Shown: positions 41,867 to 63,010 of the stretch, one piece after another
Layout: every line of letters starts with the position of its first letter
Position numbering within the stretch: the first letter of the stretch is position 1
Notes under the pieces: generated by a model
What the model was told of the DNA's origin: nothing
Seen by the model: the letters and a program-made list of their open reading frames with translations, nothing else
The model's database searches: none
NCBI RefSeq assembly: GCF_900128965.1
Contig: NZ_FQUL01000009.1
Location: 1-64,000 of the forward strand
Length of the DNA: 64,000 nucleotides
Source: Ferrithrix thermotolerans DSM 19514
GTDB taxonomy: Bacteria > Actinomycetota > Acidimicrobiia > Acidimicrobiales > Acidimicrobiaceae
Reading direction: 5' to 3'
Translations under genes and position numbers: made by a program

Positions 41867-43495
41867 TCAGTGTCGTTTCTCGAGAACAAGTTTGACGTTT
41901 CTGTCCCGTCGTGTGCCGACAAAGTTCTTCGGCAAAAGTCGTGCGACGTTGTAAGCTACGCATCTATGCCACGATGCAAGATCCGTCGTCGAGTCGACTT
42001 CGTTGGTAAAGGCGGGAACATCGACGTTTCCCATCTCAAGGTGAACCTCCAGAGCATCTGGCCTCTCCAAAATCTCCACCACTCGAAACTGGCACGGCCA
42101 GTCCATGATCGAGACCGTCGTTACTTCGTAGAACCCATATCGCCTGTCATAGGGTGAGACCGAGCGAGAAACCTCGTTCACATGAGTATGACCACTTAAC
42201 CAAAGGATAACGTTTGGATAACGGTGCAAGAGATCCGATATCTCTCCTCTATCCACCTCTTGCCTTTGGGGATCCCGAAAGCTGTTTACCATCCGCTTTA
42301 GCGGATGGTGCGAGGTGATCACTACGTAGCGATCATGGCCAAAAGGGTTGACAGTGAGCCGACCGTCTACAAAATACCTAGAAGATGCGCTCTTCAACTG
42401 CTCCTCAAGCCAAAGAAACTGCGACCTATCTATAGCTCCCTCTGCTTCCCCACCGCTTACTGCAGTATCCAACGTAACCACCCGCATCTGATCCCCTAGG
42501 TCATATGAAAAGTAGGCCACATCTTCTTCGATGTTCCACTGGGTAAACCCATGACCAGGCGGACTTCCGGGAGCTTCCATATATATTCTGACCAGATCTG
42601 AGGTGGTAATGTGTCGACGCTTGGGGTCGAAAGATACGCTACGTTGCAGTCCACTTGAGAAGAATCCGGCCGGATCGTCCACAAAGTAGGAGTAAAGATC
42701 TAAGGGCAGTTCACCTCCACCAATATCCATCGACTTAGACCCTCCCTGCGTGATCTCCTGAAGTGCTGAGCTTACCTCACCAACGCCTTGGGAAAGAATT
42801 TCATGGTTTCCGTTACAGCCGAGCCAAGGGACCTTTAGCCCTTCGCTAACTATAGGTCTCATAGCCGCAGTTAGCATACCTTCTACCACAGGAAAGCCGA
42901 AGTGCTCTTTGTACACATCAAAACCACCGTCGGGATGCCAATACTCGCTATCCCCAAAAGAACTTGAACTTACAAACTCCGGCTGATTTGAGCCTGACGA
43001 AACGTCGGCCGTTCCCCCACTAAGTAGGGAGACAACCCATCCAACTTCATTGTTTTGTGCATTGTCGATCAGATCTCCGGTAGTAAGAACCAGGTCAACC
43101 TCTCTGCCAGAGAGCTCCGAGGGAGGCAAAGAGTTGATGGTCTTTACAAGTTCACAGACCATGGCGTAGATCAAAAACTCTTGAGGCCGATAACCGGGGA
43201 TCAAACCGGAAAAACGCTTATCTTTTGAGTACCTGTTGACGTACTCGAAACGGCTGGGGGACTTTACATCAGCAAGCTGAAAGTCAGTGATATGCACAAA
43301 TCGACATAGCGATACCACATCGTCACCCTCTCCTTGAACTGTAGTTTTAAGATCTTCCCACGTGGTTTCAGACTCCCCTGGACCAACACTGAGTTGTAAA
43401 AAGTCCGACCTGTTACCTTCGTAGATTGTCGACCCTCCCACCAAGGATTCGGCGCTGGTAAATGGGTGTATCGATCCGCCACCGTTGGTGTCCAA
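41867..43495 (-). CDS. metallophosphoesterase
   Basis: A 542-residue calcineurin-like phosphoesterase resembling the TIGR03767 group. Metal-binding motifs in order: HITDFQLAD, LTTGDLIDNAQNNE, GCNGNHE, SHHPLK and LSGHTHVNE. The TTG start has AGGAGGT 8 bases upstream. There is no clear signal peptide, so the location is uncertain. Substrate unknown. The 350 bases upstream contain a series of strong hairpins that could form its leader. It is convergent with the MarR gene, 55 bases apart. Confidence 0.85.
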   Translation of the reverse strand: MDTNGGGSIHPFTSAESLVGGSTIYEGNRSDFLQLSVGPGESETTWEDLKTTVQGEGDDVVSLCRFVHITDFQLADVKSPSRFEYVNRYSKDKRFSGLIPGYRPQEFLIYAMVCELVKTINSLPPSELSGREVDLVLTTGDLIDNAQNNEVGWVVSLLSGGTADVSSGSNQPEFVSSSSFGDSEYWHPDGGFDVYKEHFGFPVVEGMLTAAMRPIVSEGLKVPWLGCNGNHEILSQGVGEVSSALQEITQGGSKSMDIGGGELPLDLYSYFVDDPAGFFSSGLQRSVSFDPKRRHITTSDLVRIYMEAPGSPPGHGFTQWNIEEDVAYFSYDLGDQMRVVTLDTAVSGGEAEGAIDRSQFLWLEEQLKSASSRYFVDGRLTVNPFGHDRYVVITSHHPLKRMVNSFRDPQRQEVDRGEISDLLHRYPNVILWLSGHTHVNEVSRSVSPYDRRYGFYEVTTVSIMDWPCQFRVVEILERPDALEVHLEMGNVDVPAFTNEVDSTTDLASWHRCVAYNVARLLPKNFVGTRRDRNVKLVLEKRH

Positions 43496-43539
43496 GGCTG
43501 TCTACCTCCTAAAAGAGTTCTACATCAATAGATTATGCA

Positions 43540-43644
43540 CCGCCAGAGGAGGGGGCACTCCTCTGGCGGCCGATATCTCGGCGCATAACCTCGGCCTCGA
43601 ACCTTTGATAAGGCCTCGACGGTCCGAGCCGGGGGCAACGGCTC
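43540..43644. ncRNA. candidate structured RNA element
   Basis: Four consecutive inverted repeats lie within 105 bases of a 350-base gap. (a) CCGCCAGAGGAG / CTCCTCTGGCGG, a perfect 12-bp stem with loop GGGGCA. (b) GCCGA-TATC-TCGGC, sharing one base with (a). (c) GGCCT/AGGCC with a 13-base loop. (d) GAGCCG/CGGCTC with a 7-base loop. No gene or T-tract is present. The element could be a leader of the metallophosphoesterase on the minus strand (45 bases before its start) or a plus-strand RNA upstream of the patatin gene. It matches none of the riboswitch classes I can recall. Confidence 0.45.
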
Positions 43645-43845
43645 TAACCGCTAAAGAAGTTCTAAAGGCCGAACTTTTACAGACGATGAAAGACCAGTAA
43701 ATAAAGTGCGTCGCAATGGCGAACAGTGATCGATAAATATAGAGGCAACTAAACCTTGAGCTAAAGCTCAGGCAAGAGGCACGCTATGATTGTTCATAGA
43801 GCAAAAGTACCGACCACCGATTCAGTTGTTGAGAGGTGCAGGTGA

Positions 43846-44874
43846 ATGAAGAGATTCTCACTAATTCGATCGATAAGGGCCAGATCCGAGACAGACTCGA
43901 TCGATAAGGAGCGGTCAAAGACGATATTTGTGCTCGGAGGCGGAGGCGGCAAAGGAGCGTGCCAAGTGGGAATGCTCATCGCTCTAATCGAACAGGGCAT
44001 CCTGGCTGACATGGTAATTGGCGTCTCTGTAGGAGCTCTAAATGGTGCGGTCTACGCCACCAACCCCACTTTGGACGGGCTTCGATCCCTCGAGAACCTC
44101 TGGGAGTCCCTAGACAAAGACACAATAATGCCCAAGAGAAAGCTAGGTACGACCTGGAGATACGCCCAGAGGGCTGAAGCAGTTTATCCAGGGGAAGGTC
44201 TGCAAAATCTCATCGACACCTACCTGGATGTCTCCGACATATCCGATACCAAGATACCCCTCGAGGTTCTTGCGGCCGATTACAGCACAGGTGAAGAGAT
44301 CTGGTTTGGCTCTGGAGAGCCGCGTTCTGTCTTATACGCATCAGCAGCGATACCCGGCGTGTTCCCACCCCTACGACTCGACAATCGGCTACTTGTTGAC
44401 GGGGGGATTGTAAATGACACTCCCATCGACAGAGCCGTCTATCAAGGTGCAACACACATATACATGCTTTTGTGCGGAACACCTTATGCACAACTGCCGG
44501 ACCCAAAACGTCCCCTTGAGGCTTTAATTAGATCCTCTACCCATACAAAGACTGCTCACTTTCGGCACCAAATAGCTCATTTACCAAGTACAGTATCGCT
44601 CACGGTGCTTGACTGCCCAGAGGCTTCGGGCATAGAGGCCCTCGACTTCTCCAAAAAGAGTCTGCTACTTCGCTGCGGTTATGAGCGCGCTCATAAAATC
44701 CTGGCGCAAGAGACGCAACCCTCTTTCTCACCTCCCGCACCACAGGAAAGAACCTCACCGACAGATATAACTGAAAAGTTCTCAGTAAGAGGTCCCATGT
44801 CTTACCTACTTGAGAGACCAAAGAGAGAGATCTATCAAAGGGGACCAACAAAGACACGACTCAAGGCCGGTTGA
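43846..44874 (+). CDS. patatin-like phospholipase
   Basis: A 342-residue serine hydrolase of the patatin/RssA family. The oxyanion glycines are in LGGGGGKGACQVG (about 31-42), the nucleophile elbow is GVSVGAL with Ser61, and the catalytic Asp is in LVDGGIVNDTPID. These enzymes cleave acyl groups from membrane lipids. The C-terminal ~60 residues are charged and Pro-rich. The ATG has AGAGGTGCAGGTGA upstream. No signal peptide is seen. Confidence 0.9.
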   Translation: MKRFSLIRSIRARSETDSIDKERSKTIFVLGGGGGKGACQVGMLIALIEQGILADMVIGVSVGALNGAVYATNPTLDGLRSLENLWESLDKDTIMPKRKLGTTWRYAQRAEAVYPGEGLQNLIDTYLDVSDISDTKIPLEVLAADYSTGEEIWFGSGEPRSVLYASAAIPGVFPPLRLDNRLLVDGGIVNDTPIDRAVYQGATHIYMLLCGTPYAQLPDPKRPLEALIRSSTHTKTAHFRHQIAHLPSTVSLTVLDCPEASGIEALDFSKKSLLLRCGYERAHKILAQETQPSFSPPAPQERTSPTDITEKFSVRGPMSYLLERPKREIYQRGPTKTRLKAG

Positions 44875-44962: not shown

Positions 44963-45994
44963 CTATGCCGTTGCCTTCAACAGGGCCTGACCAAGGTACT
45001 CGCCTGCACGTTTGACCGCATCTTTAGCCTTATCCACAAGAGCTTCCATCGAGAAAAATCCATGTACCATCGAGTCGTATAGCCAAAGCTCTGCGGTCGC
45101 CCCTGCGTCTTTGAGGGCTTTGGCAAAGGCCACGCCTTGATCTCGCAATGGATCAAAGCCTGCCACGACGATCAAAGTCTTGGGATATGGAGCAAGATCA
45201 GGTGCAAGAAGAATCGAAAATCGAAGGTCCTCCGCTTCATCAGGACTGTTCAGGTAAAGTTCACCGAACCACTGCATGTCTTTTGCGGTGAGGAAGTACC
45301 CCTCCGAGTTCTCAAGATAAGAGGGATAACTATCCTGATGCGCAGCGTCGGTAACCGGATAGGCCAAGAGAGCAAAGTCAGGCTGTCCGTGTGCATCATT
45401 ACGGCTTAAATACGACACAACCGCCGCAAGGTTGGCTCCCGCCGAGTCACCAGCGACCGCTACGGGCACGGCCGCTCCTCTTTCCTTGTCACATAGCTCC
45501 CAATTCACCATCTTCGCATAACGAAATGCATCAAGAGCATCTTCAACGGCCGCTGGGAACTTGTTCTCAGGCGCAAGAGCATAGGCAACAGATATCACAA
45601 CGGAGTTGGAGTGGTGAGCTAGTGAACGTGCGAGTTGGTCGTGGGTTGAGATGCTACCCAAGACAAAGCCGCCGCCATGGTAAAAGACCGTAACACCCAC
45701 ACAATCCCTAGCTGCTTTCGGCCAATATACCCTAATTGGGATAGTTCGAAACCTTCCGTCCACTAGACGGTCTTCTACCTTTGCCATTGGTGTTAGGTCT
45801 TTACTCTGCAGCTGCGCCATTAGCTCCAGGTTGGAACGGGCAGTTTCAACACCTGCACTTGAAAGATCTACCGTCCCTACTGCTTGAAGTGACGAGAGAA
45901 GAGCCCCTATCTGAGCATCGAGCTGTGGCAAGATCTCACCCCTGATCGCTAGAGAATTTGCTTTACATTTACAATCATATTGTGCGTCACTCAC
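44963..45994 (-). CDS. alpha/beta hydrolase, hormone-sensitive lipase (HSL) family
   Basis: A 343-residue esterase/lipase. The HGGG oxyanion motif is in VFYHGGGFVLGSI, the nucleophile elbow is GDSAGANLAA, and the last catalytic residues are GFDPLRDQG and VHGFFSM (His). This is the arrangement of bacterial HSL-type carboxylesterases acting on short-chain esters. It starts 15 bases after the aldo/keto reductase stop codon and ends the larB-larC operon. Confidence 0.9.
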   Translation of the reverse strand: MSDAQYDCKCKANSLAIRGEILPQLDAQIGALLSSLQAVGTVDLSSAGVETARSNLELMAQLQSKDLTPMAKVEDRLVDGRFRTIPIRVYWPKAARDCVGVTVFYHGGGFVLGSISTHDQLARSLAHHSNSVVISVAYALAPENKFPAAVEDALDAFRYAKMVNWELCDKERGAAVPVAVAGDSAGANLAAVVSYLSRNDAHGQPDFALLAYPVTDAAHQDSYPSYLENSEGYFLTAKDMQWFGELYLNSPDEAEDLRFSILLAPDLAPYPKTLIVVAGFDPLRDQGVAFAKALKDAGATAELWLYDSMVHGFFSMEALVDKAKDAVKRAGEYLGQALLKATA

Positions 45995-50455: not shown

Positions 50456-51898
50456 GTGACTGACACAAATACGGCGGCCGGTTCTGAAGAACATGGTCTA
50501 AGGCGCGGCGTACTAACGCTGTTCGACCCTGCGGTAATGGGGGTAGCCGGTGTAGCTCCCGCATACTCAATCGCAGCAAGTACGGCCACCTTGTTTGGAG
50601 CGGTAGCTCTAGGAGGACCAGCTGCTCTGTTGTACTGTGGTATCGCAATGTTCGGCATCGTTTGGGCCTTTAACTACCTCGGAAGAGTGGAGACCAACTC
50701 TGGTGCTAGCTACACCTGGGTTCGAAACGCCTTGCACCCGGCTCTAGGGTACATTGCGGGCTGGGCTCTAGTTGTATCGGCCCTGATCTTTATGGTCGCT
50801 GGTTCATTTCCTGCTGGATCCATAACGCTAGGGCTGTTCTCTACATCTCTCGCCAACAACACGCTGGCCGTCACCATCTTGGGATCGGTGTTCTTCCTAA
50901 TTATGGTTGGGGCAGTGGCTGCTGGAGTTACCATAACAGCAAAGCTACAGGTCATCATGTCCACCGTGGAACTCGCGCTACTTCTGCTGTTTGCAGCTCT
51001 GATGCTTCTCCATGGACACAATGCACACGCATTTTCATGGAGCTGGTTCTCGCCTGGGATATTTCACGGTTCCTCAGGTTTCTTCGCTGGCGCATTAGTA
51101 GCCGCCTTCTACTACTGGGGCTGGGACGTAACTGCAAACCTGAACGAGGAGACCAAGGGTTCGAAGGTGACGCCAGGCATAGGAGGAATAATCGGGGTCT
51201 TAGTCGTATTTGCTCTCTTTGAGGTATTCACAGTTGGATCAAATCTCGTCCTTAGCGCCAAGGATATCAACAACAACTCCGGCGATATTCTAGGAGTGCT
51301 TGGACAGATCGTCTGGCCGGGACTTGGCGGAAAGTTAATCGTAGTCGCAGTTATACTTTCCACCGTAGCAACCCTTGAGACCACTATAATTCAGGTGACC
51401 AGGACTATGTTCTCAATGGGGAGGGACGGAACTCTACCTAAGGTTCTTGGCAAGGTCCACCCCAAATGGAGAACTCCTTACATAGCAACGTTCGTAGTTG
51501 CAGTTATCTCTGTTGGGCTGTTCGTGGGATCTAATTACATCGGATCGATCGGAAATATCCTTACCGACGCAATCAACGCAATAGGTCTTCAAATTGCCAT
51601 CTATTACAGCCTTGCAGGACTATCCGTCGTCATCTTGTATCGCAAGCAGATTACCAAGAGCATTAGCAACTTCATATTCATGGGACTATGGCCCCTTTCT
51701 GGAGCCGTGTTCATGGCGATCATGTTCGTCAAAACCATTCCTGGTTTGAATCAAACTACATTGATCGTGGGCTTAGGCGCCATGGCTCTAGGTCTTATCC
51801 CCATGGCAATATATTGGGCTAAGGGAAGACCTTACTTCAATATGCCAACGCAACAAGAAAGACTTGCTCCTACAGAGGAAGAACTGGCAACCATTTAG
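50456..51898 (+). CDS. APC family amino-acid permease
   Basis: A 480-residue transporter with twelve hydrophobic segments. FDPAVMGVAGVAPAYSIAAST is the first unwound helix with the substrate-binding glycines, and GRVETNSGASYTWVRNALHP and FYYWGWDVTANLNEETKG are family motifs. It imports or exchanges amino acids across the inner membrane; specificity is unknown. The start codon is GTG; no strong binding site is seen. A 13-bp hairpin follows the stop codon. Confidence 0.92.
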   Translation: MTDTNTAAGSEEHGLRRGVLTLFDPAVMGVAGVAPAYSIAASTATLFGAVALGGPAALLYCGIAMFGIVWAFNYLGRVETNSGASYTWVRNALHPALGYIAGWALVVSALIFMVAGSFPAGSITLGLFSTSLANNTLAVTILGSVFFLIMVGAVAAGVTITAKLQVIMSTVELALLLLFAALMLLHGHNAHAFSWSWFSPGIFHGSSGFFAGALVAAFYYWGWDVTANLNEETKGSKVTPGIGGIIGVLVVFALFEVFTVGSNLVLSAKDINNNSGDILGVLGQIVWPGLGGKLIVVAVILSTVATLETTIIQVTRTMFSMGRDGTLPKVLGKVHPKWRTPYIATFVVAVISVGLFVGSNYIGSIGNILTDAINAIGLQIAIYYSLAGLSVVILYRKQITKSISNFIFMGLWPLSGAVFMAIMFVKTIPGLNQTTLIVGLGAMALGLIPMAIYWAKGRPYFNMPTQQERLAPTEEELATI

Positions 51899-51923: not shown

Positions 51924-51956
51924 GTGAGGCGATGTGCTAACTACACATCGCCTCAC
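51924..51956 (+). terminator. terminator after the amino-acid permease
   Basis: GTGAGGCGATGTG-CTAACTA-CACATCGCCTCAC: a perfect 13-bp stem with a 7-base loop, followed by TTACTTAA. Confidence 0.8.
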
Positions 51957-61757: not shown

Positions 61758-63010
61758 TATCCAACACCCGACCCAGACACAGTTGTAGTTGTGGTAATCG
61801 ATGACTCGCTTCCTCCGAGTGGGTGGGCGGCTATGTAGTGTTGTTCTCTTATTCGCGCCTCTAAGTTCTTCACATAGTTATCGGCTGCAGAGAGAGAGGG
61901 TTCGAGCACCGTGTCTTTAATCGCCGATGCCTCCACGACATTTAGTTGATCTACTCGAAGGCTTGAAACCCTAACCACCGCAGGACTGTACCAAAGCAGT
62001 CCTCCGGGGTGTCCGTGAAATATCGCCACAGAGCCATGGGACTCGCCAACAAAGTAAGAGTGATCTTCGTACAGCTGAACCGCAAACAATACCCCCCCCA
62101 CTAGGAGAACAAAGAGCAGAAGAAACAGAGCAACTCGAACGGTTATAACACCTCCACCGCGTCTTGTAGCATGGCGATCTAGTGGACGAGGAATGGAGAG
62201 AAGCTCTGGACCTCTCTTTATGAGACTCCTACCTGTCGACTCATCCGGAGCCACTCCCAGCTCGGTTGCCGGATTATCGGATTTATCGACATCGAGAGCG
62301 ACAACCTCAACGAGAACAACTGAGATGTTGTCTGTTCCACCAGAGAGGTTTGCGCTCTCGATCAGCTGGTCTGCTTTTTCTTGCAACGTATTAGACCCAG
62401 AAAGAATCGACTCAATCTCAGCGTCCTTCACGTGATTTATGAGGCCATCTGAACACAGAAGGAGAATATCTCCTTCTGTTGGCATCACCTTGAACACATC
62501 TGCGTCCACTACTGGCTCGACACCCAAAGCTTTGGTTAGAACGTGTCGTTGACTGTGATGGGCTGCCTGCTCTTCGGTGATAGATCCGCTCCTAAGAAGC
62601 TCTCCAACGAAGGTATGATCTTTTGTGATTTGCTGAAGCTCACCCCTGTGAAACAGATACACTCTGGAGTCTCCGACGTTTTGAACAAGAAAATACTCCA
62701 GTCCATCCTCTTTCACAAGAAGGGCAGCAGTCAGGGTGGTGCCCATTCCCTTTAGGGTTTGTGAATGTGAGGCCTCAGATAGAATCCGTCGATTAGCTTC
62801 CAAGAAAGAGGCTCTGAAACCCTCAAGTGCTCCACTGTCGCTTGAGAGTTCGCTGATGGTATCCACTGCTAGCTTGGACGCCACCTCTCCTCCGGCATGC
62901 CCACCCATTCCATCAGCTACCGCAAACAGTTTGCCATCGGCGTAGATTGAATCCTGATTAATCCTTCTGACTCTACCCTTGTCGGTCGAGGACGCCCAAG
63001 CGAGCTTCAA
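61757..63010 (-). CDS. pstP: PP2C-family Ser/Thr phosphatase (PstP-like)
   Basis: A 417-residue membrane phosphatase. The catalytic domain (1-235) has RRINQDS, VADGMGGHAGGEVAS, LLLCSDGLINHV and GGTDNISVVLVEV, the metal-binding acidic residues of PP2C. A helix near 300 (ALFLLLFVLLVGGVLFAV) crosses the membrane, and the extracellular tail is about 100 residues. It opposes PknB-type kinases. It overlaps fhaB by four bases and pbpA by one. Confidence 0.94.
   Translation of the reverse strand: MKLAWASSTDKGRVRRINQDSIYADGKLFAVADGMGGHAGGEVASKLAVDTISELSSDSGALEGFRASFLEANRRILSEASHSQTLKGMGTTLTAALLVKEDGLEYFLVQNVGDSRVYLFHRGELQQITKDHTFVGELLRSGSITEEQAAHHSQRHVLTKALGVEPVVDADVFKVMPTEGDILLLCSDGLINHVKDAEIESILSGSNTLQEKADQLIESANLSGGTDNISVVLVEVVALDVDKSDNPATELGVAPDESTGRSLIKRGPELLSIPRPLDRHATRRGGGVITVRVALFLLLFVLLVGGVLFAVQLYEDHSYFVGESHGSVAIFHGHPGGLLWYSPAVVRVSSLRVDQLNVVEASAIKDTVLEPSLSAADNYVKNLEARIREQHYIAAHPLGGSESSITTTTTVSGSGVG

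What the first reader, a model, noticed from the sequence alone, without database searches (positions are those of the whole stretch)
43540..43644. Four tandem hairpins in an otherwise empty 350-base gap
A perfect 12-bp stem is followed by three shorter perfect stems within 105 bases. GC content and structure density are far above neighbouring gaps. A plain terminator would not need four stems, and neither flanking gene ends here: both start. This suggests a structured leader or an independent RNA.
Basis: partly seen in the sequence, partly recalled or inferred. Interest (0 to 1): 0.5.

Follow-up and report, generated by a model that had tools for sequence, protein, structure and literature searches.

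The report
Conserved RNA leader of phosphoesterase gene
The hairpins are a real, evolutionarily conserved RNA structure that sits just in front of a phosphoesterase gene in a small group of little-known Actinomycetes bacteria; it looks like a new control region in that gene's message, but what it senses or binds is not known.

Summary
In detail: 43540-43644 has 68% G+C against 43% in the rest of the gap and lies in the most stable of 4260 windows of 105 nt on either strand. The hairpins belong to a longer RNA fold on the MINUS strand, before the gene at 41867-43495 (TIGR03767-like metallophosphoesterase). Hairpins 3 and 4 lie 5' of it. All four genomes held for the genus carry it; 12 of 43 pairs show compensated double changes. 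The minus strand fits better than the plus (-51.3 versus -37.3 kcal/mol). The junction recurs before the orthologous gene in a second genus, where the divergent patatin gene is missing, so it goes with the phosphoesterase gene. It was found in 5 of 42 family genomes. Stem sequences drift while a YGCCCC loop stays; in the genus this hairpin type is found only here above chance level. No Rfam family matches. Best reading: an undescribed cis-acting mRNA leader, trigger unknown. Transcription is untested.

The parts
43530..43591 (-). P1, the 9-bp helix closing the three-way junction (arms 43583-43591 and 43530-43538)
   Evidence: 9 pairs, 100% of cells paired in 4 genomes; 8 of 9 pairs also form in G004 (97.8% of cells over 5 genomes); 7 of 9 pairs never vary
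43570..43581 (-).
   Evidence: 4 pairs, 100% of cells paired in 4 genomes, one of them by a G.U; a longer form in the G004 fold
43540..43569 (-).
   Evidence: 3 of 12 pairs with compensated double changes in 4 genomes, 5 of 12 in 5 genomes
43593..43615 (-).
   Evidence: 5 of 10 pairs with double changes, 85.0% of cells paired in 4 genomes; the window row holds 3 of the mismatches there
43620..43650 (-).
   Evidence: 4 of 8 pairs with double changes in 3 genomes; G003 had no letters here because only its second repeat copy was aligned
43657..43676 (-). H0, probable further 6-bp hairpin
   Evidence: 2 of 6 pairs with double changes, but 55 of 500 shuffles do as well: weak
43505..43510 (-). Shine-Dalgarno sequence AGGAGG of the metallophosphoesterase gene
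   Evidence: AGGAGGTA identical in the 4 genus members
41867..43495 (-). Metallophosphoesterase gene, TTG start, 542 aa; the gene that follows the leader
   Evidence: PF00149 28.2 bits; TIGR03767 297.1 bits, below its cut-off of 330.75
43846..44874 (+). Divergent patatin-like phospholipase gene; context, not part of the element
   Evidence: PF01734 108.8 bits; no match in G004, which keeps the element

Best explanation
The hairpins are the structured 5' untranslated leader of the metallophosphoesterase mRNA, made from the minus strand. Order 5' to 3': (probable H0) - HA hairpin with a YGCCCC loop - HB hairpin - three-way junction (P1, P3, and P2 with a second YGCCCC loop) - 34 nt - TTG start, with AGGAGG in between. 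Supported by comparison: the fold, its strand, its conservation and its link to this gene. Inferred: it is transcribed, and it acts in cis on translation or mRNA stability. The loops and the invariant P1 helix would be read by a partner specific to this message: a protein (perhaps the enzyme itself), an antisense RNA, or a small molecule. My split of the trigger, given a leader: protein or other macromolecule about 0.5, small ligand about 0.3, constitutive mRNA protection about 0.2.
For: Compensated double changes in 12 of 43 pairs, 95.7% of 164 cells paired, 26-46% when partners are slid by 1-3 columns. RNAalifold on its own finds the same helices on the minus strand, -51.3 kcal/mol, against -37.3 on the plus. 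13 G.U cells on the minus strand against 2 A.C. Energy z-score more negative on the minus strand in 6 of 6 stretches from 5 genomes. Same junction, same strand, upstream of the orthologous gene in another genus, where the patatin gene is missing and the upstream esterase is kept. Junction bins (0.76-0.96 identity) more conserved than the first 55 bases of the coding sequence (0.53-0.80). It ends 34 nt (window) or 45 nt (G004) before the start codon.
Against: No transcript data. Only 5 sequences. The pair counts use a structure I drew on the minus strand. The plus strand folds much alike and has 11 of 38 pairs with double changes. P1, the key helix, shows no double change. HA is degenerate or absent in G004, and the longer 136-nt G004 stretch folds only at z -2.20. 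No shared masking of the Shine-Dalgarno by the element was predicted, no terminator, no sigma-70-type promoter match in 43300-44000, so no switch mechanism is visible.
Confidence: 0.7

Rival explanations
1. An independent small RNA from the minus strand that ends before the gene, acting in trans through its two C-rich (YGCCCC) loops on G-rich sites of other messages.
For: Two hairpins expose the same YGCCCC loop while the stems drift. The element is compact and separate from the Shine-Dalgarno.
Against: No terminator-like site after it (longest T run in the 10 nt after P1 is 3, in G004, read). It sits 34-45 nt before the start of the same gene in two genera. HA's loop is not kept in G004. Targets were not searched.
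Confidence: 0.15
2. A DNA-level element: an operator or structured-DNA site in the divergent promoter region, with the hairpins as inverted repeats for a protein and no RNA role.
For: The gap must hold two promoters, and inverted repeats are typical operators (general knowledge). P1 is invariant in sequence.
Against: Stem sequences change on both arms together rather than staying fixed. Strand bias in wobble pairs and energies. It stays in place where the divergent partner is missing. One copy per genus genome among the candidates scored.
Confidence: 0.1
3. A transcription terminator or read-through barrier for one of the neighbours.
For: A strong G+C-rich perfect stem.
Against: Neither neighbour ends here. 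The only terminator-like site in 43300-44000 is elsewhere, at 43757-43770. No run of more than 3 T in the 10 nt after P1 in any of the 5 sequences (read).
Confidence: 0.05

Closest known systems
cis-regulatory mRNA leaders of bacteria in general (riboswitches, protein-binding leaders)
   Same: Conserved fold with compensating changes, close upstream of one orthologous gene, on its strand
   Different: No match to a described family; no visible expression switch; no known ligand or protein
C-rich-loop small RNAs of Staphylococcus, such as RsaE (content recalled; only listings seen)
   Same: Hairpin loops exposing a run of C
   Different: Loop is YGCCCC, no terminator seen, next to a gene start; no homology shown
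FinP antisense RNA (RF00107), best weak Rfam match
   Same: Two hairpins in a row on a leader-like region
   Different: 18.1 bits against a gathering score of 45, E 0.43, and on the plus strand

Membership tests
Any Rfam 15 family | Score at or above the family's gathering threshold | tested here: not met
   Only a tRNA elsewhere in the window at gathering. At E up to 10 on 381 bases: 3 matches, all far below their thresholds
Riboswitch | Conserved structured RNA domain upstream of a gene | tested here: met
Riboswitch | Binds a small molecule directly | not testable with these tools
   Needs in-line probing or binding assays
Riboswitch | Expression platform: terminator or conserved masking of the ribosome-binding site | tested here: inconclusive
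   No terminator. The Shine-Dalgarno is predicted mostly paired in 5 of 5 (mean unpaired probability 0.15-0.44), but with different partners; in none of the four genus members does the most probable partner lie in the element, in G004 it is the CCCC just 5' of P1
Intrinsic terminator | G+C-rich hairpin followed by a run of T at a gene end | tested here: not met
   Both flanking genes start here; no site found at the element
C-rich-loop trans-acting small RNA | Own promoter and terminator; pairs with ribosome-binding sites of several targets | tested here: inconclusive
   No terminator-like site in place and no sigma-70-type promoter match in 43300-44000 (other promoter types not covered); targets not searched
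FinP (RF00107) | Covariance-model score of 45 bits or more | tested here: not met
   18.1 bits

The most novel reading that the evidence does not exclude
A new class of gene-specific regulatory RNA: a three-way junction with a sequence-invariant closing helix plus two hairpins presenting the same YGCCCC loop, which controls a single phosphoesterase message through a dedicated partner (autoregulation by the enzyme, or a sense-antisense kissing pair, since a plus-strand transcript would carry exactly complementary GGGGCR loops).
Probability: 0.25. Interest if true: 0.6.

Novelty: new member of a known kind. Interest (0 to 1): 0.42.

Why it matters
It is a structured RNA, supported by comparison and absent from Rfam 15, found from one short gap in bacteria for which my searches turned up no RNA-level work on this gene. 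It ties an RNA control element to a phosphoesterase family whose substrate I could not find; one paper links the family to release of phosphate from organic matter (PMC9723661, passages only). If the leader responds to phosphate compounds or to the enzyme, it would help to identify the enzyme's role. Its narrow spread limits the general importance.

Tried and rejected
Known families: Rfam at gathering and relaxed thresholds gave nothing for this place. Phage and plasmid records: no match at E 1e-5.

Wider searches. Model R1 in 397 order genomes gave the window's own element plus one match in another genome; that one (L080) lies inside a 347-aa coding frame and is judged chance. R2 in 395 class genomes gave, besides the window, 8 weak matches (20.9-26.9 bits, E 9e-4 to 0.04 per genome), judged chance by their alignments. 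These two runs used stricter filters and scored only 8 or 13 candidates per genome. A sequence pattern in 397 order genomes gave two matches besides the window, without P2 and P3. The same pattern in viral contigs gave 31 stretches; R2 over these 31 and the two order loci (33 in all) gave one match at E 0.44, opposite a 650-aa coding frame. G001-G004 are not in the genome list and not among the matches, so these draws evidently did not hold them. The 21 loci around other phosphoesterase homologues (L053-L073; a few are cut by contig ends) gave no R2 match at E <= 5 and one R3 match at chance level (15.5 bits, E 0.36). A look at 200 nt upstream of 17 of those homologues found the P1 pattern in 0 of 17, with G004 as positive control, and a YGCCCC hexamer in 2 of 17, not in an open loop (start codon taken as the furthest possible, a guess).

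Shine-Dalgarno masking by the element: not shared. A regulon of YGCCCC hairpins: model R3 in 7 genomes found both hairpins of this leader in G001, G002 and G003; in the window genome it found P2 only (its HA has a 7-nt loop) and in G004 P2 only. The next best match in any of the 7 was 20.5 bits (E 0.42), chance level (at most 150 first-look candidates scored per genome).

My own errors: one search read nine loci as if the gene were on the plus strand; its results for those are void and one search replaces them. A roughly 19-bp hairpin that it threw up in another genus lies between convergent gene ends in the two loci examined, terminator-like. The pattern was written too narrowly and missed G000, G003 and G004; it is not used. 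MAFFT misplaced part of P3 and the loop of G004 in A4, so undercounts pairing there. Alignment A7 shifts P1 of G004 by one base and was not used for counts.

Papers: searches showed no description of this element among openly licensed PMC papers. I saw listings only, except passages of PMC9723661; one search matched 950 papers and showed 10. Subscription journals are not covered.

Full report
What is there. The gap 43496-43845 lies between two divergent genes: a metallophosphoesterase (41867-43495, minus, TTG start) and a patatin-like phospholipase (43846-44874, plus). The stretch folds better than all 200 dinucleotide shuffles on either strand, and the most stable of 4260 windows on each strand starts at 43531. 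G+C is 0.68 against 0.43 in the rest of the gap.

Relatives. The element is found in all four genomes held for the genus, the window's included. In G001 and G003 both flanking genes are present and syntenic. In G002 the contig ends just inside the phosphoesterase gene, and its protein search reports none. G003 carries an extra 57-nt tandem copy of HB, the P1 5' arm and P3. One family member, G010, has a single contig of 2,158,157 bases, which I recall as the size of Acidimicrobium ferrooxidans DSM 10331; the family is then probably Acidimicrobiaceae (size recalled; lineage).

Fold and covariation. On the minus strand the four sequences share HA, HB and a three-way junction of P1, P3 and P2 (G003 was aligned from its second copy onward, so its HA is not counted). 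Of 43 pairs, 12 have compensated double changes. Of 164 cells, 95.7% are standard pairs; with partners slid by 1-3 columns it is 26-46%. None of 500 shuffles reaches the observed value for four of the five measures; 4 of 500 do for the number of pair types. The shuffle control ignores relatedness, so this is not a probability. P1 and P3 have no double change: they are nearly invariant, which neither supports nor contradicts pairing. RNAalifold, which predicts its own structure, gives the same helices on the minus strand at -51.3 kcal/mol (covariation term -3.6), 45 pairs, 12 with double changes. On the plus-strand alignment it gives a similar layout at -37.3 kcal/mol (covariation term -0.4), 38 pairs, 11 with double changes, more of them broken. 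On the minus strand there are 13 G.U cells, against 2 A.C cells that would be G.U on plus, and 5 other mismatches (the structure counted was drawn on the minus strand). The energy z-score is more negative on the minus strand in all six stretches tested, from five genomes. A further hairpin H0 (43657-43676) is likely but weakly supported (55 of 500 shuffles as high).

A second genus. Model R1 finds the element in L052 of G004 at 25.4 bits (E 6e-4 among 28 loci), upstream of the orthologous phosphoesterase gene (44% identical). The junction there folds by itself at z -5.72 with P1, P3 and P2 in the same order, though the longer 136-nt stretch is only at z -2.20 and HA lacks the GCCCC loop. Its P2 stem has a different inner sequence but the loop region still shows CGCCCC. 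Over five sequences the junction has 5 of 25 pairs with double changes, all in P2. G004 has no patatin match. Its upstream neighbour is the orthologue of the window's esterase at 44963-45994 (56% identity). So the element stays with the phosphoesterase gene, on that gene's strand, where the divergent partner is missing.

Spread. R2, built with G004, finds the element in 5 of 42 family genomes: all 4 of the genus and the single genome held of G004's genus, and 0 of 37 in six other genera (an earlier run on 40 gave the same five). Outside the family only matches judged chance were seen, in searches of limited sensitivity. The phosphoesterase itself is wider, matched in 26 of 60 genomes including the window's, and 17 homologues examined upstream lack the element. 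It is therefore probably a lineage-bound leader.

The repeated loop. Seven HA and P2 hairpins from different genomes, aligned without gaps, share only GCCCC, preceded by a pyrimidine. All 8 stem pairs show double changes (the 7 rows mix two hairpins and leave out the window's own HA, whose loop is one longer, and G003's P2, identical to G002's). Searching whole genomes with that hairpin (R3) finds, in the genus, only this leader above chance level (at most 150 candidates scored per genome). So I find no sign of a widespread binding site; the loop looks dedicated to this message.

Conservation. In the four-genome alignment the junction bins (43530-43589) are 0.76-0.96 identical, above the first 55 bases of the coding sequence (bins 0.53-0.80). 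A separate conserved block at 43710-43724 (0.76) may hold a promoter or operator; this is a guess, and no sigma-70-type match was found in the region.

How it works. Supported by comparison: fold, strand, gene association and conservation. Inferred: the mRNA begins upstream of HA (perhaps near 43680-43700) and carries the element, which ends 34 nt (window) or 45 nt (G004) before the start codon. A partner reads the YGCCCC loops and the P1 helix and changes translation or decay of the message. The Shine-Dalgarno is predicted mostly paired in all five (mean unpaired probability 0.15-0.44) but with different partners, in the four genus members most probably outside the element. There is no terminator. 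So control through a bound macromolecule or through RNA stability seems more likely to me than a textbook riboswitch. The gene is TIGR03767-like but below that family's cut-off (297.1 bits, and 294.9 in G004, against 330.75). The alignment keeps GNHE, SHHP and GHTH motifs in all four proteins (that these are metal-binding motifs is recalled). One paper places TIGR03767 proteins among secreted enzymes that release phosphate from organic matter (PMC9723661, passages).

Known or new. No Rfam 15 family matches. Text searches showed no description in the openly licensed PMC papers (listings, and passages of one paper). I file it as a new member of a known kind, a structured mRNA leader, with unknown trigger.

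Noticed in passing
L074 (G003), about 320-434: A 57-nt tandem duplication repeats HB, the P1 5' arm and P3 between HA and the intact junction, so the spacing between HA and the junction can vary.
   Followed up: partly
43710-43724: A conserved block (0.76 identity in 4 genomes) between the leader and the patatin gene; possibly the divergent promoter or an operator.
   Followed up: no
51924-51956: A perfect 13-bp hairpin shortly after the ORF that ends at 51898, terminator-like but without a long T run.
   Followed up: no
62455-62479: A perfect 11-bp hairpin with a 3-nt loop.
   Followed up: no
L054:1346-1412, L057:1356-1422, L058 minus strand: In another genus of the family an inverted repeat of about 19 bp with in-step changes lies near the phosphoesterase gene; in L054 and L057 it is between convergent gene ends, so probably a two-way terminator.
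   Followed up: partly
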